DNA of 39,765 bases from an uncultured Anaerolineaceae bacterium (lineage in GTDB: Bacteria > Chloroflexota > Anaerolineae > Promineifilales > Promineifilaceae), in the NCBI GenBank assembly GCA_937967805.1, contig CALBTC010000245.1, positions 1 to 39,765 on the forward strand, written 5' to 3'. This document shows positions 1-39,765 of this stretch, in pieces (within the stretch, counting starts at the first letter, position 1; each line of letters begins with the position of its first letter). The notes under the pieces were generated by a model. The model was given only the letters and a program-made list of their open reading frames with translations. It had not been told where the DNA came from and did no database searches. The position numbers were made by a program, and so were the translations under genes.

Positions 1-1679
1 TGCGACAGGCGGTGGGTGATGAGCAGGGTGGTGCGCCCGGCCAGGATGCTGTGCATGGCCCGCTGAATTTTGTCCTCGGTGTTGCTGTCGATGGCGCTGG
101 TGGAATCATCCAGGACCAAAATGCGCGGATCGCTGAGGAAGGCGCGGGCGATGGCCAATCGCTGCCGCTGCCCGCCGGAAAGCATCACGCCCCGCTCGCC
201 AATCTTTGTTTCATAGCCGTCGGGGAAGCGCATGATGAACTCATGCGCCTGGGCCTGCTTTGCCGCCGCTTCGATTTCTGCCTGGGGCACGTCGGCCTGC
301 GCGCCAAAGGCGATATTTTCGGCAATGGTGCGCGAGAAGAGGAAGATGTCTTGCTCAATGGCGCCAATCTGGCCGCGCAGGCTGTCCAGGTTCCAGTCGC
401 GTACGTCAATGTTGTCGATGAGGATACGGCCGTCGCCCACATCAAACGTCCGGTTCAGCAGCTTGGTCAGCGTGCTCTTACCCGCGCCCGTCTGCCCCAC
501 AATCGCCACCGTCTGCCCCGGCTCCGCCCGGAACGAAATCCCCTGCAAAACGAGAGACTGTGTTGACCCATTACCTGCCACCTGCCACTTGCCACCTGCA
601 ACCTCGCCATACCCAAAACTCACATTCTCAAACACCACTTCCCCTTCCATCTCCTGCACCACGCCTGCTTTGTTCTGATCCAGCTCAGTCTCCGTCAGGA
701 TCATCTCCAAAATGCGCTCGGCGCTGGCCAGGCTTTGCTGGAAGGTGGCAATGTTGCGCAGCAAGAAGCGGATAGGGGAGCGCAGCGTGCCTAACAGGGC
801 CATAAAAGCAATCACCTGTCCTACAGAAACAATCCCCTGCATGAACAGGTAGAGCGCGTGGCCGAAGCCCAGGCCAATCAGCAGGCCATACAGCAGCAGC
901 GGCAGGTAGCGGGCCGTCACCTCACCCTCGCGCACGAAGGCGTCGCGGTACGCCCCGGCGTTGTGGCTAAAGCGGGCCTCTTCGGCCGGTTCCTGGGCAA
1001 ACCCTTTTACTACCTCAATGCCGGAGATAGTTTCCGCCAGCCCGGCGTTCATCTCGGCAAAGGTGGCGCGCAGCTCGGTGGCGACGGGGTTCAGATTGTC
1101 GTTGTAGCGGCGCAGGGCAAAATAAGTAGCGATGAGGAAAACAATAGGGAGAAGCAGCAGACGGTAGTCTAGCGTGGTAATGGTGACCAGCGGCACCAGC
1201 AGAGTGAGAATTGACTCGGTAGTGGTGCCCAGCGCCGGACTGACAAACAAGCCGATTTGCTGCACGTCGTTGGTGGCCCTGGCCATTAAATCGCCGACGC
1301 GCTGCCGGCCGTGGAAGGTCTGGCTTTTGCTGAGCAGGCTCAGGTACAACTCGTCGCGGGTGTTGCGCTCCACCCGCTGGGCCAGCACCCGAATCGACAG
1401 GCTGTTAACGATGTCGAACAGGCCGTAGCCCACGTAAGCGGCCACCACGTACAGTGCCGCTGTGGTTAGCCCGGTGCGCCCCTCGTTTTGAATCACGCTG
1501 TCGAACGCCCAACCGACGGTAACGGCCGTCATGCTTTGCGCCGATGCCATGCCTAACGTGGTGAGCAAGAAGGTGAGCAGCAGCCCCTTGTAGCGCAAAA
1601 TGTGGGATTGCAGCCAGCGCAGGGTAGAGCGGTGGTCGTAGCTGTAGGCGTCGGCAACGGTGAATTCGCTTTGGGTCAT
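1..1679 (-). CDS. ABC exporter half-transporter (TMD-NBD), C-terminus beyond window
   Basis: Reverse-strand reading from ATG at 1679 is open to the window edge (559 codons), so the C-terminus is missing. A six-helix ABC membrane domain occupies roughly residues 20-310, followed by the nucleotide-binding domain with Walker A GQTGAGKST, Q-loop IEQDIFLFS, signature LSGGQRQR, Walker B ILVLDDSTSAID and H-loop LLITHRLS. The residue after the Walker B aspartate is Asp instead of the catalytic Glu. In the family this marks the degenerate-site partner of heterodimeric exporters such as BmrCD or TM287/288, so a partner gene probably lies just beyond position 1. The start is supported by AAGAGGA eight bases upstream. 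An extra loop of about 15 residues early in the NBD is encoded by a short repeat (571-608). Substrate unknown; multidrug or lipid export is possible. Confidence 0.9.
   Translation of the reverse strand, partial: MTQSEFTVADAYSYDHRSTLRWLQSHILRYKGLLLTFLLTTLGMASAQSMTAVTVGWAFDSVIQNEGRTGLTTAALYVVAAYVGYGLFDIVNSLSIRVLAQRVERNTRDELYLSLLSKSQTFHGRQRVGDLMARATNDVQQIGLFVSPALGTTTESILTLLVPLVTITTLDYRLLLLPIVFLIATYFALRRYNDNLNPVATELRATFAEMNAGLAETISGIEVVKGFAQEPAEEARFSHNAGAYRDAFVREGEVTARYLPLLLYGLLIGLGFGHALYLFMQGIVSVGQVIAFMALLGTLRSPIRFLLRNIATFQQSLASAERILEMILTETELDQNKAGVVQEMEGEVVFENVSFGYGEVAGGKWQVAGNGSTQSLVLQGISFRAEPGQTVAIVGQTGAGKSTLTKLLNRTFDVGDGRILIDNIDVRDWNLDSLRGQIGAIEQDIFLFSRTIAENIAFGAQADVPQAEIEAAAKQAQAHEFIMRFPDGYETKIGERGVMLSGGQRQRLAIARAFLSDPRILVLDDSTSAIDSNTEDKIQRAMHSILAGRTTLLITHRLS
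571..608. repeat. GGCAGGTGGCA-type repeat inside the ABC exporter gene
   Basis: A low-complexity sequence of imperfect units (ACCTGCC / ACTTGCC) lies in frame in the nucleotide-binding domain of the exporter and encodes GEVAGGKWQVAGNGS. The same word, GCAGGTGGCAGGT on the other strand, recurs between genes at 29430-29460. This suggests a dispersed repeat that landed in a tolerant loop. Confidence 0.6.
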
Positions 1680-1948
1680 CAATCGGTTCCTCTTGTCCGC
1701 CGGAGATCGTATCAGGTTGTGGATCATTGTCGAGGGGAATCGTCCTGTTCAAACGTCCAGTTTTAATGGGATGGGGATGCAGCCGTATGTTGGGGCGGAA
1801 CTGGCGGGAAGCGATCGTTGCCTTGCAGCAACAGTTTGTTTCCCACCAGTCGCGCCCGATTGGATCGATATAGTGTTGGGGTAATTTTTACACACACCAA
1901 AGCGGTGAATGTGCATGTTTGCGCTCAACAGGAAGCTGAGCGATTTGG
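1680..1948. other. intergenic gap
   Basis: This spacer of about 270 bases separates the sugar permease stop from the exporter start. It holds the exporter's ribosome site near 1688. I see no convincing gene, terminator hairpin or RNA in it; the open frames across it have no recognisable protein. Confidence 0.4.
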
Positions 1949-2842
1949 TCAGCCGCCCTTGACCCCGGTTGAAGCCACGCTTTGCACAAACCATTTCTGG
2001 AAGAGCAGGAAGATAATGAGTACCGGTACGGTGATCATGGCGGCGAAGGCCATGATGTCGCCCCACAGGCGCGGATATTGGCCAAAAAATTGCTGCATGC
2101 CGATCATTAACGGCCGTACTTCCTCACTCCGCGTCACCATCAGCGGCCACAAAAAGCTGCCCCAGCGGAACAAGAACTGCAAAATGGCTACCGTGGCAAA
2201 CACGGGCCGGGAGAGGGGTACGACGATGTTCCAATAGATGCGCCAACGGCTGGCCCCGTCCACCAGCGCCGCTTCCTCCAAATCGCGCGGCAGACCAATG
2301 AAGAATTGGTAGAACAGGAAGATGGAAAAGGCGTCAGCGATGAAGGGGATAATTTGTACGTGGTACGTGTCCAGCCAGCCAAACTGGTTCACCAACAGCA
2401 GCAGGGGAATGGCCACAGCCTCCAGCGGAATGATGATCAGGGCGATAATGATGGAAAGTGTCAAACGGCGGCCGCGCCAGCGCAGGCGAGCCAGGGCATA
2501 AGCGGCCATGCTGTTGACCAGCAGCCCAAACACAATCGTGGTTACCACAATCAGGATCGAGTTCAGCATAAAACGGCCGAAATTCTGCCGCTCAAACACA
2601 TCAAAAAAGTTTTGTATTCCCAAATCACCCACGGGCAGAAATGCCCGCAATGACGTCACATCGCGCAGCACCTGCGTTTCGTTGGTCTTAAAGGCGGTTA
2701 CCAGCATAAACACAATGGGGAACACAAAAAACAGCGCCAGCAAAATCATGAGGATGTAGTTTAGGGCGGCCCGGCTCCATTTGCGCCACAGGTAACCACT
2801 GCTGTGCACATGTTTCTGGGGAGTCGTTTCTAATGTTGTCAT
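1949..2842 (-). CDS. carbohydrate ABC transporter permease (MalG type)
   Basis: A 297-residue membrane protein with six predicted helices, of the binding-protein-dependent transport family. The cytoplasmic EAA loop that contacts the ATPase is clear: EAALVDGASRWRIYWNIVVP at about residues 191-210. The long first periplasmic segment after helix 1 and the overall length are typical of MalG/UgpE-like sugar permeases. Its ATG overlaps the TGA of the upstream permease gene by four bases, indicating translational coupling. It should pair with that MalF-type partner to form the channel; the sugar cannot be read from sequence. Confidence 0.93.
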   Translation of the reverse strand: MTTLETTPQKHVHSSGYLWRKWSRAALNYILMILLALFFVFPIVFMLVTAFKTNETQVLRDVTSLRAFLPVGDLGIQNFFDVFERQNFGRFMLNSILIVVTTIVFGLLVNSMAAYALARLRWRGRRLTLSIIIALIIIPLEAVAIPLLLLVNQFGWLDTYHVQIIPFIADAFSIFLFYQFFIGLPRDLEEAALVDGASRWRIYWNIVVPLSRPVFATVAILQFLFRWGSFLWPLMVTRSEEVRPLMIGMQQFFGQYPRLWGDIMAFAAMITVPVLIIFLLFQKWFVQSVASTGVKGG

Positions 2843-3846
2843 GATTCTTGAACCGTCCTTTCTTCTCTAAGAAAAGCGCGCTGTACCAGGGAAATGGCCA
2901 AGACAATTAAGAAGAAAATAATGGTGATGGCCGAAGCTTCGCCAATGCGCTGGTTGCGAAAACCGACGTTGACGACGTGAAGAACGGCCGTTACCGTCGC
3001 GTTTTGCGGGCCACCCTGAGTCATCACCTGAATCTGGTCAAACAGGCGGAAGGCCAGGATGGTGGTGGAAACCACGACAAAAATGGTCGTGTTGCGCAGC
3101 ATGGGCAGGGTCACGTAGAAAAATTCCTGCACCTTGTTGGCCCCGTCCATCGCCGCCGCTTCGTATAGCTCTTCCGGTATCTCTTGCAGTCCCGCCAGGT
3201 AGATTACCATCTGGAAGCCTACGCCCTGCCAGATTGAGAGAATCATAATAGCCGGGAAAGCCAGCGCGGGATCGTTGAGCCAGTCAAACGGCCCGATGAG
3301 GCCAAATGAAATGGTCTGCAAAAAGGCATTAATGGTGCCTTCGCCGGGGTTATAGAGAAAGGTCCAGATCACCGCTACCACCACCATCGGCACCACGACG
3401 GGCACAAAGTAGATGGTGCGGAACACGTTAGAGAATTTGATCTTTTGGTTGATGAGCATGGCCAGAAAAAGGGCCAAAGCTGTCTGGATGGGCACGACGA
3501 TGATGGCAAACAGTAAATTGTTCCACAATGCTTTGGGCAGCGTGGGCAAACGGCCGTCATCGCCGGTGGTGATGTTGGTTACGGCCGTTTCCACCGCCTC
3601 CCCCATATCTGCCGCAATCTCCTGATAATGTTCTAGCCCCACAAATCGCGTTGGCCGATTGGGATTAGAAATCAGGCGCTGATTGGTAAAAGAAAAGCCA
3701 ATAGCCATCACAAAAGGTGCCACGAGAAAAACCAGCAGCAAGAGCACGGAGGGCAGCATAAATGCCCAGGCAGAACGCTCTTCTCTGCGCTGTAATGTTG
3801 GTGACCTTCCCGAATCCGTTTCAGCCCTTGCAGGAACAACGGCCAT
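2839..3846 (-). CDS. carbohydrate ABC transporter permease (MalF type)
   Basis: A 335-residue integral membrane protein with six helices, whose EAA loop reads YEAAAMDGANKVQEFFYVTL. I place the start at the ATG at 3846 (MAVVPARAE) because AGGAGG lies five bases upstream; an in-frame TTG further up would overlap that Shine-Dalgarno. There is an extended periplasmic segment after the first helix, as in MalF/UgpA relatives. It sits between the binding-protein gene and the second permease gene. No MsmX/MalK-type ATPase gene is nearby, so the ATPase is probably shared and encoded elsewhere. Confidence 0.93.
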   Translation of the reverse strand: MAVVPARAETDSGRSPTLQRREERSAWAFMLPSVLLLLVFLVAPFVMAIGFSFTNQRLISNPNRPTRFVGLEHYQEIAADMGEAVETAVTNITTGDDGRLPTLPKALWNNLLFAIIVVPIQTALALFLAMLINQKIKFSNVFRTIYFVPVVVPMVVVAVIWTFLYNPGEGTINAFLQTISFGLIGPFDWLNDPALAFPAIMILSIWQGVGFQMVIYLAGLQEIPEELYEAAAMDGANKVQEFFYVTLPMLRNTTIFVVVSTTILAFRLFDQIQVMTQGGPQNATVTAVLHVVNVGFRNQRIGEASAITIIFFLIVLAISLVQRAFLREERTVQES

Positions 3847-3868
3847 GATGTACCTCCTCAAGAAAAAG

Positions 3869-3903
3869 CACCAGAGAATGCGAGCGCGTCACATTCTCTG
3901 GTG
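3869..3903 (-). terminator. intercistronic hairpin between binding protein and permease genes
   Basis: Perfect 12-bp arms CACCAGAGAATG and CATTCTCTGGTG enclose an 11-base loop. On the transcribed (reverse) strand the stem is followed by TGCTTTTTC. It resembles a leaky terminator or mRNA-stabilising stem, commonly seen where the solute-binding protein must be made in excess over its permeases. Confidence 0.7.
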
Positions 3904-3948
3904 CAAACATGATTATTTACAAACGATGCGTGTCACAGTGACGGCCGT

Positions 3949-5328
3949 CTAGTTGAGTGGATACCCGTCGTTGGCTTCAATATCGCTGTCGATCTCTTCA
4001 ACGGCCGCATTCAATTCTTCTTCCACATCAGCACCGTCCTTGATGTTGTCAAACGCTTCGGCAAAAGCGGTCGTGATGGCCGGATAAGCCGGTGTAATCG
4101 GTCGCGGTACGGTGAAGCCTTCCTCATTCTGCTCAATAAACAGATTGAGCATCTCGCCTTCACCATACTGATCAGACATGGCCAATGCCGACTGGCGGGC
4201 CGGAACCGCGCCATTGGCATCGGTCATGATCAAGATCTGCTCCGGCTCCATCAGGAAAGAGAGAACCTCCCAGGCGGCGTCAGGATTGGGGCAGGTGGTG
4301 GTGATGCCCCAGTTCCAGGAGCCCATGCCGGTTTTGGGTCCATCGCCGAAGTCGGGCATGGGCAGTAAGAGCAAGTCGTCCCCCAATTCTTCCTGATATT
4401 GGTTAGCAACCCAGTGACCAACCCAGCTTAAAGCGGCATCGCCATCAATAAACTCGGTGTCGCCGGCTGGTTCAGGGTTGACATAACCATTTTCAAACCA
4501 ATCCTGCACCATTTCCATGGCTTCTATGGCTTCAGGACTATTCAAAACCCCATCGGCGCTCTGGTAATCATCACGGTCAATCAGGCCGGCATCGGCGCTC
4601 CAGAGGATGGGGGCAAAGCCATAGGTGAACCATTCGCCACGGCCGTAATTGATTTTCAGGTCCAGCGCATACTCTACCTCAGGCAGTTCTTGCAAGGCTG
4701 CCAGGGCGTCGTTAAACTCTTCGCGGGTCCACGGTTCTTCGATGGTGGGAATGCGAACACCGGCTTCTTCCAGGTAGGATTGCCGCGCCCAGATCGCCAG
4801 ACCGGAGTCAAATTGGCCCAGACTGTACAGGTTGCCATCCTGGAACGTTCCCTGGTCTATGATCGACTGCAAAAAGTCGTTGCGCATTTCATCGGAAACA
4901 TAATCATCCAGCGGAAGCAGGAAACCGCCCCAAACGTAGTTGTAAAGGTTCGGTCCGTCAAAGTCCAGCAGGCAGGGCAGATCGTTGGCAAAAGCCGCCG
5001 CCTGCACCTGATCGTTGTAGCTGCCCTCCGGCAGTTCAACCGCATCCACGGTGATGTTGGGATGCTCATCAGCAAAATTGCTCAGGATTTGATTCAGCGC
5101 GTCCCGCTCAGCGCCGCGTCCTGAATGGAACCACAGGGATACGGTAGTGGGTTCATCTGCCACTCCCTCAGTGGTTTCCTCGAGCTCTTCTAGCGGTTCT
5201 TCTTCGGTGAGCGGTTCGGCTCCTTCAGTGGTTTCTGTATCCGTCGTGTCACCGCCACAGGCAGCCAGCGCTAAGGCAAGGACGACGATTAATCCGACAA
5301 GTTGCCACAAAATACGAGGTTTTCGCAT
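3949..5328 (-). CDS. extracellular solute-binding lipoprotein, family 1 (sugar ABC importer)
   Basis: About 459 residues from the ATG at 5328, chosen because AGGAGG lies nine bases upstream (the in-frame ATG at 5346 overlaps that site). The N-terminus is a lipoprotein signal with lipobox LALAAC, then a Thr/Glu-rich tether to about residue 60, then a type 1 periplasmic-binding fold beginning VSLWFHSGRGAERDALNQIL. The core contains features of maltose/glycerol-3-phosphate-type binders: DAVELPEGSYNDQVQAA, LLDFDGPNLYNYVW and a C-terminal stretch on NGAVPARQSA. It is the first gene of the importer operon and should capture an oligosaccharide or sugar derivative outside the membrane. Ligand unknown. 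An ACGGCCGT motif touches its stop codon. Confidence 0.92.
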   Translation of the reverse strand: MRKPRILWQLVGLIVVLALALAACGGDTTDTETTEGAEPLTEEEPLEELEETTEGVADEPTTVSLWFHSGRGAERDALNQILSNFADEHPNITVDAVELPEGSYNDQVQAAAFANDLPCLLDFDGPNLYNYVWGGFLLPLDDYVSDEMRNDFLQSIIDQGTFQDGNLYSLGQFDSGLAIWARQSYLEEAGVRIPTIEEPWTREEFNDALAALQELPEVEYALDLKINYGRGEWFTYGFAPILWSADAGLIDRDDYQSADGVLNSPEAIEAMEMVQDWFENGYVNPEPAGDTEFIDGDAALSWVGHWVANQYQEELGDDLLLLPMPDFGDGPKTGMGSWNWGITTTCPNPDAAWEVLSFLMEPEQILIMTDANGAVPARQSALAMSDQYGEGEMLNLFIEQNEEGFTVPRPITPAYPAITTAFAEAFDNIKDGADVEEELNAAVEEIDSDIEANDGYPLN

Positions 5329-5361
5329 GAGTTTCTTCCTCCTCATAAACTAAAATCATTA

Positions 5362-5417
5362 TTTCTCCGGAAACTGCATTCCAGATGATTCGTCTATCTA
5401 AAGGTTTCCGGGGAAAC
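5362..5417. repeat. inverted repeat, CCGGAAAC family (copy 1)
   Basis: Arms TTTCTCCGGAAAC and GTTTCCGGGGAAA are reverse complements with one mismatch, separated by about 28 bases. The same pair recurs at 16440-16492. It lies upstream of the sugar-binding protein gene. Confidence 0.75.
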
Positions 5418-5581
5418 GCTAAATATCATAACAGCGTGGCTAGCACGTAGATTGAGGGGAGTGATGGAAGTAACTTGGGTTTGGTGGTGTGGTACACATG
5501 CATCGCACACACTTTGGAACCGGCATTTTCGCCAGTGTAGATTAGTTTAGGTAGCAGACAGGTGGGCGCATGTGCTTAGAT

Positions 5582-5611
5582 ATATGTAGCAGATACATAT
5601 CAAGATATAAT
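5582..5611 (+). promoter_or_regulatory. operator-like dyad and -10 box before the DUF6940-like gene
   Basis: A perfect dyad ATATGTA-GCAGA-TACATAT (5582-5600) lies directly upstream of TATAAT (5606-5611), about 50 bases before the next start codon. No good -35 box is seen, which would fit an activator- or repressor-controlled promoter. The regulator is unknown. Confidence 0.4.
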
Positions 5612-5662
5612 GACTGGGCAACGGCCGTACAAACTCTCAGCAATAAATAGGGGTATTCGCTT

Positions 5663-6262
5663 ATGCTCAAATCGAGCGTAGACATTTTGCGGGATGGGCA
5701 AGTGCAACAGGTGCAGATTCTAGACGGTGAACGGCCGTTCACCTACCAAGAAACCCTGCAAAAATGGCAAAGCGATGAATCATTCCGCACCCTTTTCATC
5801 AATCTTTTAGCCGACGCCCCATTTGCTGCCTACTTTTGGGAAACGCCGCCTGTTACGGAAAAGTTGTCGGCACGGCCGTTTGAATTTGTCCTCGTCAATG
5901 CCCCCCAACTGGCTAAGGTGCCGGCCCAGCGCCACGCCTTTGCTTCTTATTTCAGCGACGATCCTGTTGCCGATCCCGTCGTCGATTTTCCCAATCTGGG
6001 CGGCGACGCCCAACTGATTGTGCCCTGCCCCCAGGCGTCTGCCGATCAGTTTGCCCATTTGGCCATTTTTAGCCGCAGCGCCTCCCTGGCGCAGCAGCAC
6101 CAGTTTTGGCAGCGGGTGGGAACGGCTGTACAAGACCAGGTGGGAGAACGGCCGTTGTGGGTCAGCACCTCCGGGTTGGGCGTGTACTGGCTGCACGTGC
6201 GGCTGGATTTGCGGCCCAAATATTATACGTTTCGGCCGTATCGGGCGTGGCCGCAGTCGTGA
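5663..6262 (+). CDS. DUF6940-like conserved protein
   Basis: A 199-residue soluble protein with no signal peptide or membrane segment. Segments such as AYFWETPPVTEKLSARPFEF in the middle and the ending YYTFRPYRAWPQ resemble the conserved regions I recall for DUF6940. That assignment is from memory and not certain. No catalytic function is known to me. It stands alone, transcribed away from the sugar importer, with a possible dyad-controlled promoter upstream. ACGGCCGT occurs three times inside the gene. Confidence 0.7.
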   Translation: MLKSSVDILRDGQVQQVQILDGERPFTYQETLQKWQSDESFRTLFINLLADAPFAAYFWETPPVTEKLSARPFEFVLVNAPQLAKVPAQRHAFASYFSDDPVADPVVDFPNLGGDAQLIVPCPQASADQFAHLAIFSRSASLAQQHQFWQRVGTAVQDQVGERPLWVSTSGLGVYWLHVRLDLRPKYYTFRPYRAWPQS

Positions 6263-6344
6263 TGAATATCACTTGTACCACTGTCACCTTCCTGGCATAC
6301 TAACTATCTAACAATCTCACCAATTATTTTCTAAAGGAGTGAAA

Positions 6345-6770
6345 ATGGATAAGCAAAAGCTGATTGACAAATTAAACGAAGATTTGGCAGGCGAACTGGG
6401 GGCTATCATCCAGTATATCACCTATGCAGCCAAGGCCACCGGCCCTTACCGGCCACAACTGTCACAATTTTTCCTGGAGGAGGTGGCCGACGAGCAGGTA
6501 CATGCGCAGTTTCTGGCCAATAAGATTGTGGCTCTGGGTGGCGAACCAACGACAACGCCACGTCCTGTACCCGCAGCCAGCAGCAATCGTGAAATGTTGG
6601 AAGCGGTGCTGGCTGCCGAGCTGCGAGCGGGCAAAGATTACACTCAGCGAGCCGAAGAGGCTGACGCTTATGGCGATAAAGGATTGGTTGTGGCGCTGGA
6701 AGATATCGTGCGCGACGAGATGGGCCATTCTGAAGAAACCGAGCGGATGCTGCGCGACTGGCCCCTTTAG
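6345..6770 (+). CDS. ferritin-like (bacterioferritin/Dps-type) protein
   Basis: About 141 residues. The ATG at 6345 is favoured over the in-frame GTG at 6339 because AAGGAG ends five bases before it. The sequence is a four-helix bundle with the di-iron pattern of the ferritin-like superfamily: a Glu in helix A (GELGAIIQY), EXXH in helix B (DEQVH), a Glu in helix C (AAELRAGKDY) and a second EXXH in helix D (DEMGH). Such proteins oxidise and store iron or protect DNA from peroxide. It is shorter than true bacterioferritin (about 155-160 residues). No heme-ligand Met was identified with confidence. Confidence 0.85.
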   Translation: MDKQKLIDKLNEDLAGELGAIIQYITYAAKATGPYRPQLSQFFLEEVADEQVHAQFLANKIVALGGEPTTTPRPVPAASSNREMLEAVLAAELRAGKDYTQRAEEADAYGDKGLVVALEDIVRDEMGHSEETERMLRDWPL

Positions 6771-6773
6771 CGG

Positions 6774-7118
6774 CTAACTGCGCCCAACAACGAGCTGCAC
6801 GCCGTCGAGGACACTTTGCAAAATGAAGTTGGGCACGGTGCCGGCGTATTCCGTCAGGAAGTGGCGGTCGATGGTAATAATTTGGGCCACGTTGGCCACG
6901 CAGGGGTGGGGCAGGCCGGAGTCGGACTGGGCAATGAGCACATTGCCGGGGGCGGGGGCTAGTTTCCAGTCCGGACTGAGGGTGATGCATACGGCCGTTT
7001 CCAGCACGCTGCGGTTAAAAGCATCACTTTGAATAACAAGAACGGGCTGTGGCTCCGACAGTTCTGGCGGCTGTGACCACCAGATTTGTCCTTGTTTGAG
7101 AGACACGTCTACTTCCAT
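6774..7118 (-). CDS. MazF/PemK-family mRNA interferase toxin
   Basis: A 114-residue protein matching the small SH3-like barrel of MazF/PemK endoribonucleases. It opens with KQGQIWWSQPP (usual form GDIWW), then PVLVIQSDAFNRS, then a hydrophobic strand TAVCITLSP and later CVANVAQIITIDR. In the family these proteins cleave mRNA at short motifs. It overlaps the preceding small gene by 10 bases, the usual antitoxin-then-toxin order. The catalytic Arg of the first loop is not at its usual spot, so activity is inferred from family only. Confidence 0.82.
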   Translation of the reverse strand: MEVDVSLKQGQIWWSQPPELSEPQPVLVIQSDAFNRSVLETAVCITLSPDWKLAPAPGNVLIAQSDSGLPHPCVANVAQIITIDRHFLTEYAGTVPNFILQSVLDGVQLVVGRS

Positions 7119-7351: not shown

Positions 7352-7407
7352 AGACAGTTCGGCAAGATTGTTCTAGCAATTAACGGTACAAACTTTATAA
7401 AAATGTT

Positions 7408-7436: not shown

Positions 7437-7475
7437 CAGCTTTACCGCTTCCCGACATAGTACCAAAGGGCTAGG

Positions 7476-32730: not shown

Positions 32731-32792
32731 GGCGCAATTTTACGCTGATGTTTGTCCATGTCCAACGGCTCTCAAGGTTTCAGGAATGGTTT

Positions 32793-32886: not shown

Positions 32887-32894
32887 TTTGGTCC

Positions 32895-32946: not shown

Positions 32947-32961
32947 GAAAATGTGAGAATT

Positions 32962-33546
32962 ATGCCCAGAACAGCGGAACAAAACGAAGAGATACGGGCC
33001 GCCACCAGAGCGGCCATTTTAGACAGCGCCATGCGTCTGTTTGCTGAAAAAGGATATGCCCACACCACCACGCGCAATATCGCCACGGAAGCGGGACTTT
33101 CTGTCGGGTTGATGTATCACTATTTCAGCAACAAAGAGAGTTTGCTGCAGGCCGTGTTTGACACTGTGATGGCCCGGATAGATGAGGCGATTACGGCCGT
33201 TCTGCAAAACAACCCGCCCGGCGAGCGATTAGCTGGCCTGCTGCACACCATCTTTGACCTGCTGGCCGGTGAGCCGGAGTTTTGGGCGTTGTTTTATATG
33301 CTGCGTACCCAGCCGGCTATCATGGCCGTATTGGGTGACGATTTTCGGCAGCGAACCGCCAGCTTGCGCGCCTGTTTTGTTGAGGAGTTAGAGCTAACGG
33401 ACCGGACAGATCCGGAATTAGAAGCTTATTACCTGTACAGCGTGGTTGAAGGCACCATCCAGCAATATTTGCTGGACCCGGCCAGCTATCCCCTGGCAGC
33501 TATTGTAGAAAAAATGATAGTTCAATTTGGAGGTAAACAAACATGA
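32962..33546 (+). CDS. TetR/AcrR family transcriptional regulator
   Basis: About 194 residues from ATG 32962 (the in-frame GTG at 32953 is an alternative). The N-terminal helix-turn-helix is canonical: AILDSAMRLFAEKGYAHTTT, then RNIATEAGLSVGLMYHYFSN with KESLLQAVF. The C-terminal ligand domain includes PEFWALFYMLRTQPAIM and GTIQQYLLDP. It opens a three-gene operon, each joined to the next by a four-base overlap. An operator-like dyad sits on its promoter. Ligand unknown; the SRPBCC protein encoded next could share it. Confidence 0.92.
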   Translation: MPRTAEQNEEIRAATRAAILDSAMRLFAEKGYAHTTTRNIATEAGLSVGLMYHYFSNKESLLQAVFDTVMARIDEAITAVLQNNPPGERLAGLLHTIFDLLAGEPEFWALFYMLRTQPAIMAVLGDDFRQRTASLRACFVEELELTDRTDPELEAYYLYSVVEGTIQQYLLDPASYPLAAIVEKMIVQFGGKQT

Positions 33547-34049
33547 ATCAGTATGAAGTTTCCGTCTCGCGCGTGATCGACGCGCCGCCGGCGGCCGTTT
33601 ACGCGGTGTTTGCCGATTATCATCAGGGCCATGCGGCCGTTTTGCCCAAGCCGTACTTCACCGAAATGACGGTAGACAAAGGTGGCACCGGGGCCGGCAC
33701 CGAAATCACCGTCAAAATGAACGTCTTAGGCGGGAAAGTCACTTACCACATGGTGGTAACCGAACCGGAACCGGGTCGTGTGCTGCAAGAGGAAGACAAA
33801 GCCGCCGGCGTGCTCACCACCTTTACGATGGACCCGGTGAACGATGGACAGGCAACCAACGTCACGCTTTACACCCGTGCCAAAACAGCCCCAGGACTCA
33901 AAGGCTTCATCGAGAAGCTCATTACGCCGCCCATCTCGCGCAAGATTTACAACGAGGAACTGGATTTGCTGGCAGCATATGTGCAAAAGGGACCGGTTTT
34001 GGCTGGCAGAAAAACAATCACCTTTCCCAAAAGAGGAAATAACAAATGA
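33543..34049 (+). CDS. SRPBCC-fold (START/Bet v 1-like) protein
   Basis: A 168-residue protein with the hydrophobic-pocket fold of polyketide cyclases and activator proteins: VSRVIDAPPAAVYAVFADYH at the start, then GTGAGTEITVKMNVLGGKVT and TEPEPGRVLQEEDKAAGVLT. It may bind or modify a hydrophobic ligand. It overlaps the TetR gene by four bases and the following gene by four bases, so its level is tied to the repressor. Confidence 0.88.
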   Translation: MNQYEVSVSRVIDAPPAAVYAVFADYHQGHAAVLPKPYFTEMTVDKGGTGAGTEITVKMNVLGGKVTYHMVVTEPEPGRVLQEEDKAAGVLTTFTMDPVNDGQATNVTLYTRAKTAPGLKGFIEKLITPPISRKIYNEELDLLAAYVQKGPVLAGRKTITFPKRGNNK

Positions 34050-34867
34050 AGTTGTCAACTGAGGATGCAGACCTGTTTTTTGAACTTATGTTCCCGCTGC
34101 AATTTTATGTCAATCAGAAAAAGGGAATTCTGCCTGATGTAGCATCCCTTCAAGATTACATGGCGCTGGATGTAAAAGATCAAGCGGCCGTTCGCGATGC
34201 TTTGTGGCAGGAGTCATCTCTAATTGCCCAGTATGTAGCCGAAAACCCCAACAAGCTGTCGGAAGAGCATCTCGCTCTCGTTGCAAACTGGCAATTGCGC
34301 GTGGTGGATCGTTTTGTCCTGGAGCGCCTGCTCAAAAAGCACGCCATTTTCATTGCCGGTGAAAAGGTGTATGCGGTTTTGGGGCTGCACAATTCGTTTG
34401 CTGAAATGGTTCCCAAAGAAGCGCTGCCAGTTTTTATTGAAACGGTTTTGCTGCCGTTTAGAGACGTCATTATTTACGACGGGCTGATACGTGGCGGCAA
34501 CATCATGATTGGCCGCAACATGGCTGCCGGTTTCAAAGAAACTTACATGGCAGCCAAGCGTAAGGGCAACATTATCGCCAGCTTGAATCCAGAGGTGCAG
34601 GCACGGCAGGCAGCCAAAAAGCCCAAACCGCTCAAAGATTGGCAGCCACTGCTCAATTCATTGTCAGATGAGGCCAAATCGTTGCGTGCCGAAAGCGGTT
34701 CGCCGCCGACCTGGGGGCCGGCGTTTAGTTTGGTGAAGGCGAGTCTGGCTTTTGCGGAAACGGCCGTCGCCACTCCTCAAGATGATGATGCCCTTTGGAA
34801 AAGCTTTGAGCGCATCGTACGCAGCGTGAACAAGCTCGAAAATGGCATCTTCCAGACGATGGATTAA
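34046..34867 (+). CDS. conserved hypothetical protein, third gene of the TetR operon
   Basis: A 273-residue soluble, mostly helical protein I cannot assign to a named family. It has no signal or membrane segment. A recognisable middle region is HAIFIAGEKVYAVLGLHNSF followed by LLPFRDVIIYDGLIRGGNI, and a Lys-rich segment KKPKPLKDW follows. The ribosome site GAGGA lies in the preceding gene. Its tight coupling with TetR and SRPBCC genes suggests a common response, not a known one. Confidence 0.8.
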   Translation: MKLSTEDADLFFELMFPLQFYVNQKKGILPDVASLQDYMALDVKDQAAVRDALWQESSLIAQYVAENPNKLSEEHLALVANWQLRVVDRFVLERLLKKHAIFIAGEKVYAVLGLHNSFAEMVPKEALPVFIETVLLPFRDVIIYDGLIRGGNIMIGRNMAAGFKETYMAAKRKGNIIASLNPEVQARQAAKKPKPLKDWQPLLNSLSDEAKSLRAESGSPPTWGPAFSLVKASLAFAETAVATPQDDDALWKSFERIVRSVNKLENGIFQTMD

Positions 34868-34881
34868 GGCTTCCCCCGTAC

Positions 34882-35256
34882 TTAAATCCCTAGAGAATAA
34901 CGGCCGTACACCACAAACAAAGTCAACAGTAAAACGACCACCGTGGCCATGGCCATCCGCCCCTCACCCCGCCTCAGGCGTAAATTGACGGCCCCAGCCA
35001 TGATGATGGCCAGTCCTATCGCTGCCAGTGGTGTTAGCTGAGGCAAGAACCCGGTGGCCTGGGGCAAAACCAGCCCGAGCCCGCCTAGAAGTTCCAGCAC
35101 CCCCAGGATTCTAAGAAACCCGGATGGAAAATCGGCAGCGTATGCGGTGAAGCTGCCCTGCATCAACAGTTCCCGCGACTGCCTCAATTTCTGAGCGCCC
35201 GTCGCGATGAAAAGTAATGCCAAGAAAATTTGAACGATCCATAACGCAATATTCAT
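34882..35256 (-). CDS. DoxX-family membrane protein
   Basis: A 124-residue protein with four hydrophobic helices. IALWIVQIFLALLFIATGAQKL, RILGVLELLGGLGLVLPQAT and LTPLAAIGLAIIMAGAVNLR are typical of the DoxX/DoxD-like family, whose members include quinone-linked or redox-associated membrane proteins. GGAGA lies upstream, inside a tandem repeat. It converges on the TetR operon. Confidence 0.87.
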   Translation of the reverse strand: MNIALWIVQIFLALLFIATGAQKLRQSRELLMQGSFTAYAADFPSGFLRILGVLELLGGLGLVLPQATGFLPQLTPLAAIGLAIIMAGAVNLRLRRGEGRMAMATVVVLLLTLFVVYGRYSLGI

Positions 35257-35263
35257 CTACCTT

Positions 35264-35450
35264 TCTCCTTCAAAAATAGCTTCACGCAAAGTCGCAAAGA
35301 CCGTTTGGCGCACTTGGTGGCTTGGCGTGAAACTTTCATTCATGGTGTTGAGCTTGCGCTCATGTCGTCTCCTTCAAAAATAGCCTCACGCCAAGCCGCA
35401 AAGACTGTTTTGGCACCCTTGGCGGCTTGGCGTGAGATTTTCATTTATGG
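35264..35450. repeat. tandem duplication with hairpin-forming unit
   Basis: Two units 104 bases apart begin TCTCCTTCAAAAATAGC (35264 and 35368) and end TTCATTCATGG / TTCATTTATGG. The second contains perfect 15-base arms CTCACGCCAAGCCGC and GCGGCTTGGCGTGAG (35385-35436); the first keeps a decayed form. The word CACGCAAAG also belongs to the family at 10704 and 11957. The unit carries the DoxX ribosome site. Confidence 0.8.
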
Positions 35451-35551
35451 ACTTGTTATCGTAGATCTTGATTATATGTTGCCAACCCCCGATCCCCAAG
35501 CTACACTCGCTGGCAAACTTGCCTGCACACAAACTCGCAAACTGGAACGCT

Positions 35552-36490
35552 ATGCAAAACGGCCGTTACGTACATATTTTCTTCCTCGATGGCGTCGGAT
35601 TGGGCGAGGCTGATCCGGAAATCAACCCGTTTGTCACCGCCAAAATGCCCCATCTCACCAACCTGTTAGGCGAGGGATGGTACCTTGCCCGCCAACCGAT
35701 CATAACGGAGCGGGCCAGCCTGGTGCCTACCGATGCCAACCTAGGGATGCCCAACAAGCCGCAAAGCGCCACCGGGCAGGCAACCATCCTCACCGGGCGC
35801 AACGTGCCCCAACTGGTGGGCCAGCATTACGGTCCCAAGCCAAACCCGGCTGTGCAGGAAGTGATCGCCCAGGGAACCCTGTTTAAAGAGGTGGTGGACG
35901 CGGGCGGGCGGGCGGCGCTCATTACGCCGTACCCGCAAGGCTACTTCGATGCCGTTACGCGCGGCAAGCGGCTGCTTTCGGCCGTGCCCCTGGCGGCAAC
36001 GGAGGCAGGATTAGATTTGATGACAGCGGATGATTTGCGCAACGGCCGTGCCGTCAGCCCCGGCTTTACCGGGCAGGGGTGGCGCGATCATTTGGGCTAC
36101 GCCGACATCCCCCTGCTGGCGCTGGCTGAAGCCGGGCAGCAAATTGCCCAGGTGGCCCGCCGCTACCAGTTCAGCTTCTTCGAGCATTGGCCAAGCGACC
36201 GGGCCGGGCATCGCGGCACGCTGGCCGAAGCCGCCGCCCACCTGGAGATGATCGACGACGTTTTCGCTGGCCTACTGGACGCCTGGGACGATGAGAATGG
36301 CCTGCTCATCCTCACCAGCGATCATGGCAACATTGAGGACAAAAATCAGCGACAGCACACGCGCAATCCCGTGCCGACGCTGCTGATCGGGCCCGATCAC
36401 GTCCATCTCGCCGCTCAAATCCACGATCTGCGCGACATCGCCAAAGTCACCCGCACCTTTTTACACCTGCCTGCCCGCGACTTTTCGTAA
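35552..36490 (+). CDS. metalloenzyme of the alkaline phosphatase superfamily (phosphopentomutase/iPGM-like)
   Basis: About 312 residues from ATG 35552. Metal-ligand motifs of the superfamily are present: HIFFLDGVGLGEADPEINPF (first Asp), KPQSATGQATILTGRNVPQL (nucleophile Ser/Thr), LLILTSDHGNIEDKNQRQHT (Asp-His and His), and a PVPTLLIGP strand. It lacks the long inserted domain of full-length phosphoglycerate mutase and resembles the short metalloenzyme subgroup, whose substrate is often a phosphorylated sugar. The exact reaction is not readable. An ACGGCCGT begins five codons in. Confidence 0.85.
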   Translation: MQNGRYVHIFFLDGVGLGEADPEINPFVTAKMPHLTNLLGEGWYLARQPIITERASLVPTDANLGMPNKPQSATGQATILTGRNVPQLVGQHYGPKPNPAVQEVIAQGTLFKEVVDAGGRAALITPYPQGYFDAVTRGKRLLSAVPLAATEAGLDLMTADDLRNGRAVSPGFTGQGWRDHLGYADIPLLALAEAGQQIAQVARRYQFSFFEHWPSDRAGHRGTLAEAAAHLEMIDDVFAGLLDAWDDENGLLILTSDHGNIEDKNQRQHTRNPVPTLLIGPDHVHLAAQIHDLRDIAKVTRTFLHLPARDFS

Positions 36491-36554
36491 GTTTTATTAT
36501 AATTCGGAAAGGGTAAGGTATTGTTGATTCAAACATGATAACAAGGATTCTTGT

Positions 36555-37064
36555 ATGACGATTAGTTCAGAAAAATTTCGCGAAGCGCTGCGCCTGTTTC
36601 CGGCCGGCGTGACCATTGTGACCATTAAGGCGCCCGGTTACGAAAAGCCACACGGCCTCACGGTTTCTGCTTTTGCCTCCATTTCGCCGGAGCCGCCGCT
36701 CATTATGATAGCCATCGACCATCGTGCGTCCGGGCATGAGATGTTGCAGCAGGAAGGCGCAGTTTTTGCCGTCAATATTTTGTCGCAGGAGATGAGCGAA
36801 CTGTCGAACCGGTTTGCCTGGATTAAGGATGAAGACCGGTTTGCCGTGGGGAATTGGGGAACGGCCGTAACCGGTGCCCCCATCCTGCAAAACGCCCTCG
36901 CCTGGCTCGACTGTACCATCTACAACCGCTCTGAAGCCGGCACGCACACCATCTACATTGGCGAAGTGCAGGCGTCGGCCACTCCCGGCGCCGGCCCGCC
37001 TCCCCTCATTTACTGGAATCGCGGCTATCGTTACCTGAAGATTAGTGAGGAACCGACAGATTAA
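36555..37064 (+). CDS. flavin reductase-like protein (FMN-binding split barrel)
   Basis: A 169-residue protein of the HpaC/FRE family. The FMN-binding motif is LRLFPAGVTIVTIKAPG, with GLTVSAFASISPEPPLIMIA and AVNILSQEMSELSNRFA later. Members reduce FMN or FAD with NAD(P)H to supply two-component monooxygenases, or carry flavin themselves. AAGGA lies seven bases upstream of the ATG. It is convergent with the lipoprotein gene, ending six bases away, and no partner monooxygenase gene is nearby. Confidence 0.88.
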   Translation: MTISSEKFREALRLFPAGVTIVTIKAPGYEKPHGLTVSAFASISPEPPLIMIAIDHRASGHEMLQQEGAVFAVNILSQEMSELSNRFAWIKDEDRFAVGNWGTAVTGAPILQNALAWLDCTIYNRSEAGTHTIYIGEVQASATPGAGPPPLIYWNRGYRYLKISEEPTD

Positions 37065-37069
37065 TTGGT

Positions 37070-37996
37070 TCACGGCCGTTCATAAGCCGATAAGTTCTCT
37101 GTACGTATTACCGTTGCTGGTGGTTCGTAAGTTTGCGTGCCAAAACGGGAAAGCAGCACTGCGCCAAACAGCAAAACGGCCGTTCCCCCCAGCAGCAGCC
37201 CGCCAATCCAGGGCAGAGCATACAATCCCATCAACAGCAGCGTGCCGCCAAACGTGGCCCAGCCCGGCGAGATCGGTTGCCCCAACTGCACTGCCAGCCA
37301 GCGCCCCAACTGCGCCCCCATTGAAATAATCCCTAAACCCCATACCAGGAAAATCAGCAAACTCAAGATGATCACCAGGGGGAGCAGCACAATCGTAAAG
37401 GCCATCATCACCAGCAGGGTGGGCAAGATCAGCAGACCCAGCAGACCCAGGGCTGCGGCGGGCAGCCAGTGCGCCGTGGCGGCTTCGGCCACGTTGTGCA
37501 AGGGTTGCGATTGCCAGCGGGTGAGCAGCCCGCCCAGCGCCGCCAGCAGCAGCGCGCCCACCAGCCAGCGGGCCGTCGCTTGCCAACCGGCGAGCTGTGA
37601 AGTCTCCTCCAGCGGCAGCGCCAGCCCGGTGATGGTTTCGCCCTGGACAACGGCCGTATTTGCCCGCCGCGTTGTGCCGCCGCCGGCTTGTAAATCGCCG
37701 CCAACCACGGCCTCCGGTCCTAATGTGACCGCTCCGTCCAGCACGGCCAGATCGCCGGCAATGCGGCCGTTCGCCAGCAGCTCGCCGCCAACTACGTAGA
37801 CCGTCCCGTTGACCTGAGAGCCGGCGCTGAATTCGGCCGTGCCTGCCCGCAGCAACACGTCTCCCGGCAGGTTTGTTTCCGGGCCAAAGGTGTGGCTGCC
37901 CTTAAAAATCAGCGTGCTGCTGTAAACACCATCGTCGCAGCCGGCCAGCAGCAAGACCAGCAAAAAGATGCAAACAGATCGGATTAACTTTTTCAT
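37070..37996 (-). CDS. bactofilin-like lipoprotein with C-terminal membrane helices
   Basis: A 308-residue protein. ATG 37996 gives a lipoprotein signal (RSVCIFLLVLLLAGC); the longer in-frame start lacks one. Residues about 25-115 are short repeated beta turns of the polymer-forming type (GDVLLRAGTAEFSAGSQVNG, then GRIAGDLAVLDGAVTLGPEA). A hydrophobic region of five or so helices follows (about 145-290). It overlaps the MFS gene stop by four bases. Such bactofilin-plus-membrane proteins are common in Chloroflexota and other groups; function unknown. Confidence 0.82.
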   Translation of the reverse strand: MKKLIRSVCIFLLVLLLAGCDDGVYSSTLIFKGSHTFGPETNLPGDVLLRAGTAEFSAGSQVNGTVYVVGGELLANGRIAGDLAVLDGAVTLGPEAVVGGDLQAGGGTTRRANTAVVQGETITGLALPLEETSQLAGWQATARWLVGALLLAALGGLLTRWQSQPLHNVAEAATAHWLPAAALGLLGLLILPTLLVMMAFTIVLLPLVIILSLLIFLVWGLGIISMGAQLGRWLAVQLGQPISPGWATFGGTLLLMGLYALPWIGGLLLGGTAVLLFGAVLLSRFGTQTYEPPATVIRTENLSAYERP

Positions 37997-39276
37997 GGTT
38001 TGACCCCCCATTTTAATGGCCGTATCGCCAGCAGCAGCATTCCCAGCAAAAAGAGCAGCGCCAGCGCCTGCACGATGCGCAAATGTTCGTCCAGCGGCAT
38101 TCCCTGGGTTTGCCAGCGAATGGCCAGGGCCGTACTCAGAAAGGTAGCGGCCCAACCGGAGCAGGCGACGCCGACGGCCGTATTGCCGCTAACGGTTTGC
38201 GGCGTGGACAGGTCGGCCCACAGGGCAAAGTTGACGACGGTGTAGAGGGAAACGGCCGTCGCATACAGCATCGGCGTGCCCAGGGCGGCAATGGTTGTTT
38301 GCGGCAGCAGCCAGACACGAAAGGTGTAAGAAAGATGCGTCAGGGCAAAGAGGCCAAAAATCCAGTAAAAAAGGTGGCGTTCATTTAGATAGCTGTACAA
38401 AATACCGGCCACTAGCGCGGCGACGACGTGGGTGACGGCAATGATCAGCCGCGGCGTTTGGGTCACCGCCTGCCACGCCCCATCCACCAAAATCGGCGTA
38501 TCGATCATGCGCAAAAAGCCGAGGCTGTCGACAAAAAAGATGGCGAAGAGCAGCGCCACAAAGCCCAGGAAGCGGCGGTCAATCCGGCCAGAACTGCTGC
38601 GCAAAAAGCGACCGCGCCCAAACCGGGCCCGTTTTTGATTTTCGGCCAGCTCGGCCACCCAGGTGGCAACAAAAGATCGCCCGCTGCTGGCCAGAACCAC
38701 AATGCCGCCCAGCGCCAGAACGCCCGGCACCATGATCAGCAGCATGGCCCGGCTGAACGGCTCGACTTGCCAGCTGCCGGGAAAAGCCGCCGCGGCAAAG
38801 TAGGCTACGGCCGTAATCGCCGCCGCCACGTACCCCCGATCCCGCACCGGGATCAGATCAACGGTCAGGCTGAAGGTGGTGGGCACGCCCACGCCCAGTG
38901 CCAGGGAACAAACGACTATCCAGAGCAAAAAGTGGGATTGGGAGGCGACGTGGGGGGCAACGGCCGTTAAGACCGTTTGCACCAACACCACTCCCAGCGT
39001 CAACTGGAGTTTGCGCAGAAGATGGGTACTCCAGCCGCGCCGCTGCATAGCAAAACCTACCCCCAATGCCACCAGGCTGGTGAGCAGCGCCAGCAGCGCC
39101 ATCTGCTGCGTCACGGCCAGTGCGGGCAGCCCCAACACCTGTTCGCCCAAATCCTTCAGCCCCAGCTGCACAAAGGTGACGTTATAAAAATAGCCGATGG
39201 CCATCATGCTGATGAACAGCCCGTAACCGGCCACCACCGGCCAATTGCGGGCGCGAACGTACAGAAAAAAGTCCAT
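37993..39276 (-). CDS. MFS transporter
   Basis: A 427-residue polytopic protein with about 12 helices in two bundles. PVVAGYGLFISMMAIGYFYN, GVPTTFSLTVDLIPVRDRGY (the arginine-rich loop between helices) and RFGRGRFLRSSSGRIDRRFL (central loop) fit a major-facilitator exporter or permease. Substrate unknown. It is translationally coupled to the downstream bactofilin-like lipoprotein. Confidence 0.82.
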   Translation of the reverse strand: MDFFLYVRARNWPVVAGYGLFISMMAIGYFYNVTFVQLGLKDLGEQVLGLPALAVTQQMALLALLTSLVALGVGFAMQRRGWSTHLLRKLQLTLGVVLVQTVLTAVAPHVASQSHFLLWIVVCSLALGVGVPTTFSLTVDLIPVRDRGYVAAAITAVAYFAAAAFPGSWQVEPFSRAMLLIMVPGVLALGGIVVLASSGRSFVATWVAELAENQKRARFGRGRFLRSSSGRIDRRFLGFVALLFAIFFVDSLGFLRMIDTPILVDGAWQAVTQTPRLIIAVTHVVAALVAGILYSYLNERHLFYWIFGLFALTHLSYTFRVWLLPQTTIAALGTPMLYATAVSLYTVVNFALWADLSTPQTVSGNTAVGVACSGWAATFLSTALAIRWQTQGMPLDEHLRIVQALALLFLLGMLLLAIRPLKWGVKP

Positions 39277-39299
39277 AAAAAGTAAGTGATAGTGAAATA

Positions 39300-39701
39300 T
39301 TAGCAGTCCGGATGGTCAGGGCGGATTTTGGCCTGCACCAGGGCACGCAGCGTGATTCGGATGGTTTCTGGTGGCGCGCCTTTGCTCAGGAACGCGTTGG
39401 TATCGGCTTGCAGTGCCTCTTTTTGGGCTTCCGGGCGGCTGCTCATGGCGATGATTTGCAAAGACGGCCGTTCAAAGCGCACCAAGCGGAGCAAATGGGG
39501 CAAAGGCAAACCGGGCAGCTCCCAATCCAGCAGCAGCACATCAGCCGGATGCGTAGAGACGGCCAATAACAGCCCGGTAGCATCGGCCGCTTCCCCAACG
39601 ATGACGATGCCCGGCTCCTGTTCCAGCAGCATATGCAGCGCGCGGCGGACATGGGCCTGGTCATCGGCTAACAAAACACGGAGTGTGCGCATGTCTTCCA
39701 T
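39300..39701 (-). CDS. single-domain response regulator
   Basis: A 133-residue CheY-like receiver without an output domain. Acidic pair in RVLLADDQ, phosphoacceptor Asp in DVLLLDWELPG (about residue 59), Ser in IIAMSS and the conserved Lys in NAFLSKGAP are all present. The start at 39701 has GAGAGG seven bases upstream. It lies just downstream of a putative promoter and is not next to a histidine kinase gene in this window. Confidence 0.9.
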   Translation of the reverse strand: MEDMRTLRVLLADDQAHVRRALHMLLEQEPGIVIVGEAADATGLLLAVSTHPADVLLLDWELPGLPLPHLLRLVRFERPSLQIIAMSSRPEAQKEALQADTNAFLSKGAPPETIRITLRALVQAKIRPDHPDC

Positions 39702-39709
39702 TTAAATAC

Positions 39710-39753
39710 CTCTCTCCTCGTATAATATGAATATCAAAGGGGCCAGCCCTTTG
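39710..39753 (-). promoter_or_regulatory. promoter and dyad upstream of the receiver gene
   Basis: On the reverse strand a perfect dyad CAAAGGG-N5-CCCTTTG (39735-39753) is followed by TATTAT as a possible -10 box near 39722 and then the ribosome site GAGAGG. No clear -35 hexamer is seen, so the dyad may be an activator site. Confidence 0.45.
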
Positions 39754-39765
39754 ACCTAATGTAAA

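What the first reader, a model, noticed from the sequence alone, without database searches (positions are those of the whole stretch)
1..39765. ACGGCCGT palindrome is about 100-fold over-represented
I counted about 64 copies of ACGGCCGT by hand (the count may be off by a few); equal base frequencies predict about 0.6 in this length. At least 15 are the longer AACGGCCGTT. Copies occur in genes on both strands, in all three reading frames (Thr-Ala-Val, Asn-Gly-Arg, Arg-Pro all occur in the esterase gene alone), and between genes. So codon preference is not the cause. It resembles the cyanobacterial HIP1 octamer, whose role is debated. A methylation target, repair or nucleoid-binding site are possible. 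I know of no description of this motif for Chloroflexota.
Basis: partly seen in the sequence, partly recalled or inferred. Interest (0 to 1): 0.9.

Follow-up and report, generated by a model that had tools for sequence, protein, structure and literature searches.

The report
Genome-wide iterated octamer in Chloroflexota
An uncultured Chloroflexota group carries one eight-letter palindrome, ACGGCCGT, thousands of times per genome, kept nearly unchanged by evolution and apparently tied to a DNA-methylating enzyme that has mostly lost its partner cutting enzyme; it looks like an independent counterpart of the long-unexplained HIP1 repeat of cyanobacteria.

Summary
The count is exact: 64 ACGGCCGT in 39,765 bases (0.77 expected); the next palindromic octamers have 4. 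It is genome-wide: 2,887 to 15,176 copies in 14 of 30 related genomes examined. Of 396 genomes of the class, 18 are rich in ACGGCCGT alone, one in TCGGCCGA (7,668), one in GCGGCCGC (12,040), and four in CGGCCG without one fixed flank. So CGGCCG is constant and the flanks are lineage dialects. Third-codon G/C positions inside the octamer are identical in 495 of 505 comparisons, against 23,712 of 30,130 outside: sites are maintained. A roughly 670-aa methyltransferase-like protein, X, is in 19 of these 20 octamer genomes and 31 of the other 376. In 16 genomes X lies beside a PF12183 (NotI) endonuclease gene, a family whose known members cut GCGGCCGC or CGGCCG (recalled); only 2 of 28 octamer genomes examined keep such a gene. 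Best reading: a HIP1-like system built on an orphaned NotI/EagI-type methyltransferase. Methylation and the maintenance mechanism are inferred, not shown. X is not in the window; the window's own genome is not held.

The parts
1..18530 (.). 35 copies of ACGGCCGT, first bases at 426, 1522, 2110, 2984, 3550, 3581, 3941, 4639, 5621, 5731, 5872, 6148, 6991, 7998, 8725, 8805, 8906, 9052, 9272, 9803, 10086, 10533, 11223, 11726, 13165, 13234, 13498, 13647, 14919, 14958, 15424, 16009, 16323, 17633, 18519
   Evidence: exact pattern count; GC 0.565 here
18531..28200. octamer-poor low-GC stretch with 2 copies (24371, 27613): by ORF content (my reading) methyltransferase, sulfotransferase, flippase and glycosyltransferase genes, probably acquired later
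   Evidence: GC 0.421, 2 octamers, 5 CGGCCG
28201..39765 (.). 27 copies of ACGGCCGT, first bases at 28298, 28415, 28687, 28738, 29197, 29907, 30467, 30663, 31066, 31209, 31284, 31571, 32293, 33193, 34760, 34900, 35559, 36042, 36861, 37072, 37176, 37650, 38174, 38252, 38807, 38960, 39464
   Evidence: exact pattern count; GC 0.569 here
17189..19111 (-). sulfate adenylyltransferase / APS kinase gene (my reading), used as the query that found the relatives; carries octamers at 17633 and 18519
   Evidence: 80 loci kept, best matches 96, 94 and 89% identical; alignments of this region

Best explanation
ACGGCCGT is a highly iterated palindrome (HIP) of a Chloroflexota (Anaerolineae) lineage. It works like cyanobacterial HIP1 but arose separately and has a different sequence. 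Its fixed core, CGGCCG, is most likely the target of protein X, an amino-methyltransferase derived from a NotI/EagI-type restriction-modification system whose endonuclease most octamer genomes have lost. Sites are kept at about one per 470 to 650 bp by a process that needs the methylated octamer; my best guess is methyl-directed strand choice in mismatch repair, which preserves sites and favours mutations that complete one. Shown: genome-wide excess, fixed core with changing flanks, exceptional conservation, co-occurrence with X, neighbourhood of X and NotI-family genes. Inferred: that X methylates CGGCCG or the octamer. Guess (about 0.3 on its own): the repair role.
For: Genome-wide: 14 of 30 genomes hold 2,887 to 15,176 copies against 40 to 459 of the reversed pattern. 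Same core, three octamers: ACGGCCGT in G002 and G008, TCGGCCGA 304 in 200 kb of G122, GCGGCCGC 309 in 200 kb of G021, expectations 5.0 to 9.4, mean spacing 625, 474, 654 and 643 bp. Conservation: 246 of 269 octamers identical over 14 informative pairs of relatives; third-codon G/C positions 495 of 505 inside, 23,712 of 30,130 outside; A/T 105 of 112 against 8,547 of 13,952 (pairs share genomes and are not independent). X: found from weak PF01555 hits; in 14 of 15 octamer genomes of the first set (G011 lacks it) and 19 of 20 against 31 of 376 in the class survey (Fisher 5e-18 without correction for kinship). X has intact motifs DPPY and DPMMGGGTT in the 46 sequences compared and passes PF01555's cut-off (40.7 and about 55 bits). 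Specificity: PF12183 (NotI) genes in 17 of 61 genomes, 16 of them within about 400 bp of X on the same contig (positions; E-values). Orphan state: NotI gene in 2 of 26 octamer X carriers and 15 of 30 other X carriers (Fisher 0.001); CGGCCG obs/exp median 1.0 with a NotI gene (16 genomes) and 4.9 without (35). Alternatives without coextension: m5C PF00145 absent from 11 of the 24 octamer genomes examined; Vsr in 5 of 27 genomes; D12 enzymes tested are Dam.
Against: No methylation data. X is absent from the octamer genomes G011 and G161 (both in short contigs) and is split by an apparent frameshift in G122, carries one in-frame stop in G015, and is partial in G001, G004, G013, G331 and G237. Seven sampled X carriers without a NotI gene show no clear CGGCCG excess (G016, G088, G179, G193, G234, G309, G380: 0.7 to 1.9). 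G024, G227, G300 and G367 are rich in CGGCCG without X at the cut-off used. G021 and G264 keep a NotI gene and yet are full of sites. X and octamer share ancestry, so co-occurrence may be partly kinship. The NotI/EagI specificities are recalled; neither of two NotI-like proteins tested matched a solved structure. A and T flanks do not fit the GmeC rule of Elhai's model (PMC4390886).
Confidence: 0.62

Rival explanations
1. DNA-uptake dialect: the octamer is an uptake signal for natural transformation, spread and kept by biased uptake and recombination; flank changes are dialects, X only marks self DNA.
For: Dense, conserved, in all frames, lineage dialects with a constant core. In Synechocystis, methylation by the HIP1-core enzyme raises integrative transformation (PMC6604393, passages).
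Against: Known uptake sequences are not palindromic (recalled); the link with X and with NotI genes has no role in it. No competence genes were searched.
Confidence: 0.12
2. Binding site of an abundant chromosome-organising protein, with the link to X being shared ancestry.
For: A palindrome suits a dimer; close pairs under 50 bp are about half as frequent as random in G002 (0.036 against 0.077), G008 and G122.
Against: Thousands of sites would have to switch flanks together with the protein in G021 and G122; spacing is otherwise near random (CV 0.88 to 1.01) and G021 shows no deficit of close pairs.
Confidence: 0.09
3. Another, unfound enzyme of the same lineage makes and keeps the sites; X's co-occurrence is phylogenetic coincidence.
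For: Core-rich genomes without X (G024, G227, G300, G367) and X carriers without excess. G024 and G367 share an m5C enzyme at 71% identity, which could be a second CGGCCG enzyme; G227 has none.
Against: NotI-family genes beside X in 16 genomes point to CGGCCG independently of the octamer; X tree: octamer label needs 2 changes, shuffled mean 15.1.
Confidence: 0.13
4. Compositional or codon artefact.
For: Phase 0 is preferred in genes.
Against: Order-1 Markov expectation 6.0 against 639; noncoding copies; synonymous-site conservation; neighbours in the class have tens of copies.
Confidence: 0.01

Closest known systems
HIP1 (GCGATCGC) and alternate HIPs of cyanobacteria (Elhai 2015, PMC4390886: outline, sections 7 and 9, part 1 of section 18)
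   Same: One octamer palindrome at about one per kb or denser genome-wide; hexamer core kept while flanks change between lineages (there GCGATCGC and TCGATCGA); deviations at the outer bases; methyltransferase for the core present; many genomes also carry Dam and few GATC sites.
   Different: Core CGGCCG instead of CGATCG; other phylum; A, T or G flanks, so the GmeC rule does not fit; candidate enzyme is an unrelated NotI/EagI-linked type instead of the m5C or m4C CGATCG enzymes.
NotI/EagI-type type II restriction-modification (PF12183)
   Same: X lies beside a NotI-family gene in 16 genomes; core equals the EagI site, and the G021 octamer equals the NotI site (sites recalled).
   Different: 26 of 28 octamer genomes show no PF12183 gene, and sites are hugely enriched instead of avoided.
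alpha-class m4C methyltransferases M.CbeI / DmtB (PMC3425538, passages)
   Same: DPPY motif in a cytosine-N4 enzyme with a GGCC target; motif I before motif IV, as in X.
   Different: They are D12 proteins of another size; X has PF01555-type halves in the reverse order and about 390 residues between the motifs.

Membership tests
Highly iterated palindromes (HIP) | One palindrome vastly over-represented genome-wide | tested here: met
Highly iterated palindromes (HIP) | Present in all reading frames and in noncoding DNA | tested here: met
   phase 0 preferred
Highly iterated palindromes (HIP) | Sites conserved beyond their surroundings | tested here: met
Highly iterated palindromes (HIP) | Deviating sites differ mainly at the first and last base | tested here: met
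   met in G002 and G008; in G122 and G021 non-octamer CGGCCG are near expectation (84 against about 75; 41 against about 62)
Highly iterated palindromes (HIP) | A methyltransferase for the sequence is present | tested here: inconclusive
   X co-occurs and its neighbours suggest CGGCCG, but its specificity is untested
HIP1 proper | Sequence GCGATCGC in a cyanobacterium | tested here: not met
   CGATCG is at or below expectation in the octamer genomes sampled
NotI/EagI restriction-modification | Endonuclease and methyltransferase genes side by side | tested here: not met
   not met in 26 of 28 octamer genomes; met in 15 other genomes and in G021 and G264, except that G370 has the two on different contigs
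Dcm/Vsr-like very short patch repair | m5C enzyme plus Vsr nuclease | tested here: not met
DNA uptake sequences | Preferred uptake during transformation | not testable with these tools
   needs cultures; competence genes were not searched

The most novel reading that the evidence does not exclude
The octamer is a 'self by presence' mark: DNA is copied, repaired or tolerated properly only if it carries enough octamers methylated by the orphaned NotI-type enzyme. Host chromosomes and the mobile elements that live in them are then driven to accumulate sites, and the dialect of flanks separates lineages. Four stretches of IMG/VR contigs hold 3.0 to 3.7 octamers per kb, at or above the densest same-size host windows examined, though the search that found them favours dense contigs and the octamer-poor stretch of the window shows that a lack of sites is not lethal.
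Probability: 0.14. Interest if true: 0.95.

Novelty: new variant of a known kind. Interest (0 to 1): 0.8.

Why it matters
The origin and use of HIP1 have been debated for decades on cyanobacteria alone. A second, apparently independent system in another phylum, with three octamer dialects on one core, genomes with the same enzyme family with and without its endonuclease, and a density close to that of HIP1, allows comparative tests: does loss of the endonuclease precede accumulation, does the flank follow the enzyme, do genomes lose sites after losing the enzyme? It also names one gene to express and one methylation mark to look for in existing long-read data of activated sludge.

Tried and rejected
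m5C methyltransferases (PF00145): not coextensive. PF01555 in general: too many and too varied; only its weakest hits led to X. D12 enzymes (PF02086): widespread in the clade (26 of 30) but the three tested are Dam by TIGR00571, and G009 has no good match. Vsr: 5 of 27. X in plasmids: 131 records, all under 60% identity. Solved structures for X: only short matches to methyltransferase cores, best CcrM E 4.8e-4; model pLDDT 85.2 but no Foldseek match at E 0.001 or better, so the fold adds only that both motif regions lie in a methyltransferase-like protein. NotI-like proteins in the PDB by sequence: none relevant. Elhai's GmeC rule as it stands: rejected, since A and T flanks occur. Papers with methylation data on Chloroflexota: PMC6329791 (passages) reports GANTC, TTAA and GCWGC for CL500-11 relatives; PMC12772301 (passages) gives no CGGCCG; neither concerns this lineage as far as I saw. 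Two more literature searches for NotI/EagI and one for the NotI fold gave no text confirming the family's specificity. An ORF extraction was wrong because loci were not turned to the match strand; one search repeats it correctly.
Full report
Observation. The window holds exactly 64 ACGGCCGT where base composition predicts 0.77; the next palindromic octamers have 4 copies. 64 of the 101 CGGCCG carry exactly the A...T flanks, and the one-base variants of the octamer number 0 to 8 each, so a GC-rich hexamer does not explain the excess. The copies occur in all three frames of the esterase gene, and 7 of 64 lie outside 41 main ORFs that I chose by hand. A low-GC stretch at about 18530 to 28200 has only 2 copies, as expected of DNA acquired later.

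Extent. The window's own genome is not held. A search with the sulfate adenylyltransferase/APS kinase gene kept 80 loci; the octamer is dense in L001 to L010, L012, L013 and L015 and rare or absent in the more distant ones. Whole-genome counts in 30 genomes: 14 hold 2,887 to 15,176 copies, G024 1,727, G014 646, and the other 14 at most 287, with 4 to 459 copies of the reversed pattern. In 396 genomes drawn from the class, 21 have at least 1,000 copies and all others at most 657. The same 396 were counted for TCGGCCGA (G122 7,668; G367 2,070; G024 1,326; others below 1,000) and GCGGCCGC (G021 12,040; the next, G159 with 2,249, has 1,515 of the reversed pattern, so composition explains much of it). 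Taken together, 18 genomes are ACGGCCGT-specific, one is TCGGCCGA-specific and one GCGGCCGC-specific; G024, G227, G300 and G367 are rich in more than one of the three. In 14 to 42 kb of sequence, G024, G227 and G300 have 10 to 18 times the expected CGGCCG with no fixed flank; G367 was not sampled. I did not count CCGGCCGG genome-wide.

Statistics in large samples. G002 (400 kb): 639 octamers, order-1 Markov expectation 6.0. G008 (400 kb): 839, 9.4. G122 (200 kb): TCGGCCGA 304, 5.3. G021 (200 kb): GCGGCCGC 309, 5.0. Mean spacing 625, 474, 654 and 643 bp; coefficient of variation 0.88 to 1.01; pairs closer than 50 bp are about half to a third as frequent as random in G002, G008 and G122, but not in G021. 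CGGCCG without the full octamer: 266 in G002 and 376 in G008, above expectation (130 and 204 for all CGGCCG at order 0); 199 of the 266 and 204 of the 376 keep one correct flank. In G122 (84) and G021 (41) they are near or below expectation. Changes inside the core are rare throughout (0 to 22 for any single variant). The next bases out also have preferences that differ between genomes: A/T in G002, C/G in G008, T or A in G122, C/G in G021.

Conservation. Over 14 informative pairs of relatives 246 of 269 octamers are identical in the partner (0 of 1 in the least informative pair); third-codon G/C positions inside octamers agree in 495 of 505 cases, outside in 23,712 of 30,130; A/T positions 105 of 112 against 8,547 of 13,952 (two further pairs had no alignment). 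With other octamers of the form A, six G or C, T as control, agreement was 0 to 58% against 64 to 100% for ACGGCCGT in 15 pairs (which counts gap-split sites as lost). Pairs share genomes, so these are not independent samples, but a roughly tenfold lower change at synonymous G/C positions leaves little doubt that sites are maintained.

The enzyme. Several octamer genomes have few DNA methyltransferases. PF00145 is absent from 11 of the 24 octamer genomes examined. The D12 enzymes tested are Dam. The weakest PF01555 hits in G001, G002, G008 and G013 led to one protein of about 670 residues, X, with PF01555 halves in the reverse order, motif I (DPMMGGGTT) before motif IV (DPPY), and both motifs conserved in 46 homologues. 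X is in 14 of 15 octamer genomes of the first set and in 19 of 20 in the class survey against 31 of the other 376 at 45% identity or more (where only up to three candidates per genome were scored). On the X tree the octamer label needs 2 changes, against 15.1 in shuffles. Homologues are plentiful (1,580 at E 1e-20 or better among 7,997 scored, 120 listed) and named 'DNA methyltransferase' in Candidatus Leptofilum.

What X recognises. The most frequent neighbour of X in the loci examined is a protein of about 290 residues (12 of 44 loci) that matches PF12183, restriction endonuclease NotI, in four tested members (E 6.3e-7 to 2.7e-58). Genome-wide, 17 of 61 genomes have such a gene and in 16 it lies within about 400 bp of X; G370 has the two on different contigs; G201, G216 and G222 have a stop inside it. 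NotI cuts GCGGCCGC and EagI CGGCCG (recalled; no paper confirming this was found). A methyltransferase paired with such nucleases should protect CGGCCG-type sites, which is the octamer's core. NotI genes occur in 2 of 26 octamer X carriers and in 15 of 30 other X carriers; among 51 sampled X carriers the median CGGCCG obs/exp is 1.0 with and 4.9 without a NotI gene (kinship not corrected). So site enrichment goes with an orphaned enzyme. G104, with an apparently intact pair, has 1 CGGCCG in 20 kb where 14 are expected.

What does not fit. G011 and G161 are octamer genomes without X; both are in short contigs. X is split by an apparent frameshift in G122 and has one stop in G015; G001, G004, G013, G237 and G331 hold pieces at contig ends. 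G016, G088, G179, G193, G234, G309 and G380 carry X, no NotI gene and no clear CGGCCG excess. G021 and G264 keep a NotI gene and are full of sites. The core-rich genomes G024, G227, G300 and G367 have no X by the cut-off used; G024 and G367 share an m5C enzyme (71% identity over 317 residues), G227 has none.

Mechanism. Elhai's model (PMC4390886, section 18, part 1) lets a GmeC-dependent mismatch-repair step create and keep HIPs. The density and the outer-base pattern fit such a ratchet, but A and T flanks do not contain GmeC. This last step is a guess. Vsr-type repair is not general here (5 of 27 genomes); MutH-like enzymes and competence genes were not searched.

Mobile elements. The seed favours dense contigs. 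L379 has ParA, anti-repressor, transglycosylase and FtsK-like genes, L367 a helicase loader and replication genes; L416 and L375 gave little. Whether they are phages, plasmids or host pieces is open.

Verdict. It is a new variant of a known kind: a second, apparently independent highly iterated palindrome system, in another phylum, with a candidate enzyme of NotI/EagI type.

Noticed in passing
window 18530-28200: Low-GC (0.42), octamer-poor block with methyltransferase, sulfotransferase, flippase and glycosyltransferase-like ORFs between octamer-rich flanks: looks like a later acquired surface-polysaccharide island (my reading of ORFs).
   Followed up: partly
L379, L416, L367, L375 (IMG/VR contigs): Octamer densities of 3.0 to 3.7 per kb in contigs classed as viral, at or above the densest host windows examined.
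   Followed up: partly
G024, G227, G300 (L239, L238, L237); G367: CGGCCG 10 to 18 times expectation without a fixed flank in the first three and without X; G024 and G367 share an m5C enzyme at 71% identity.
   Followed up: partly
G021:C49:10800-13973 (L181, L196): X, a NotI-family gene and a 63%-identical fragment of X's N-terminus lie in a row, as if a restriction gene had recombined into the X locus.
   Followed up: no
octamer genomes: GATC is mostly at 0.6 to 0.9 of expectation in ACGGCCGT genomes that carry Dam-like D12 genes (exceptions G013, G161, G402), while most other relatives have 1.1 to 2.8; cyanobacteria with HIP1 show the same pairing (PMC4390886, section 9).
   Followed up: no
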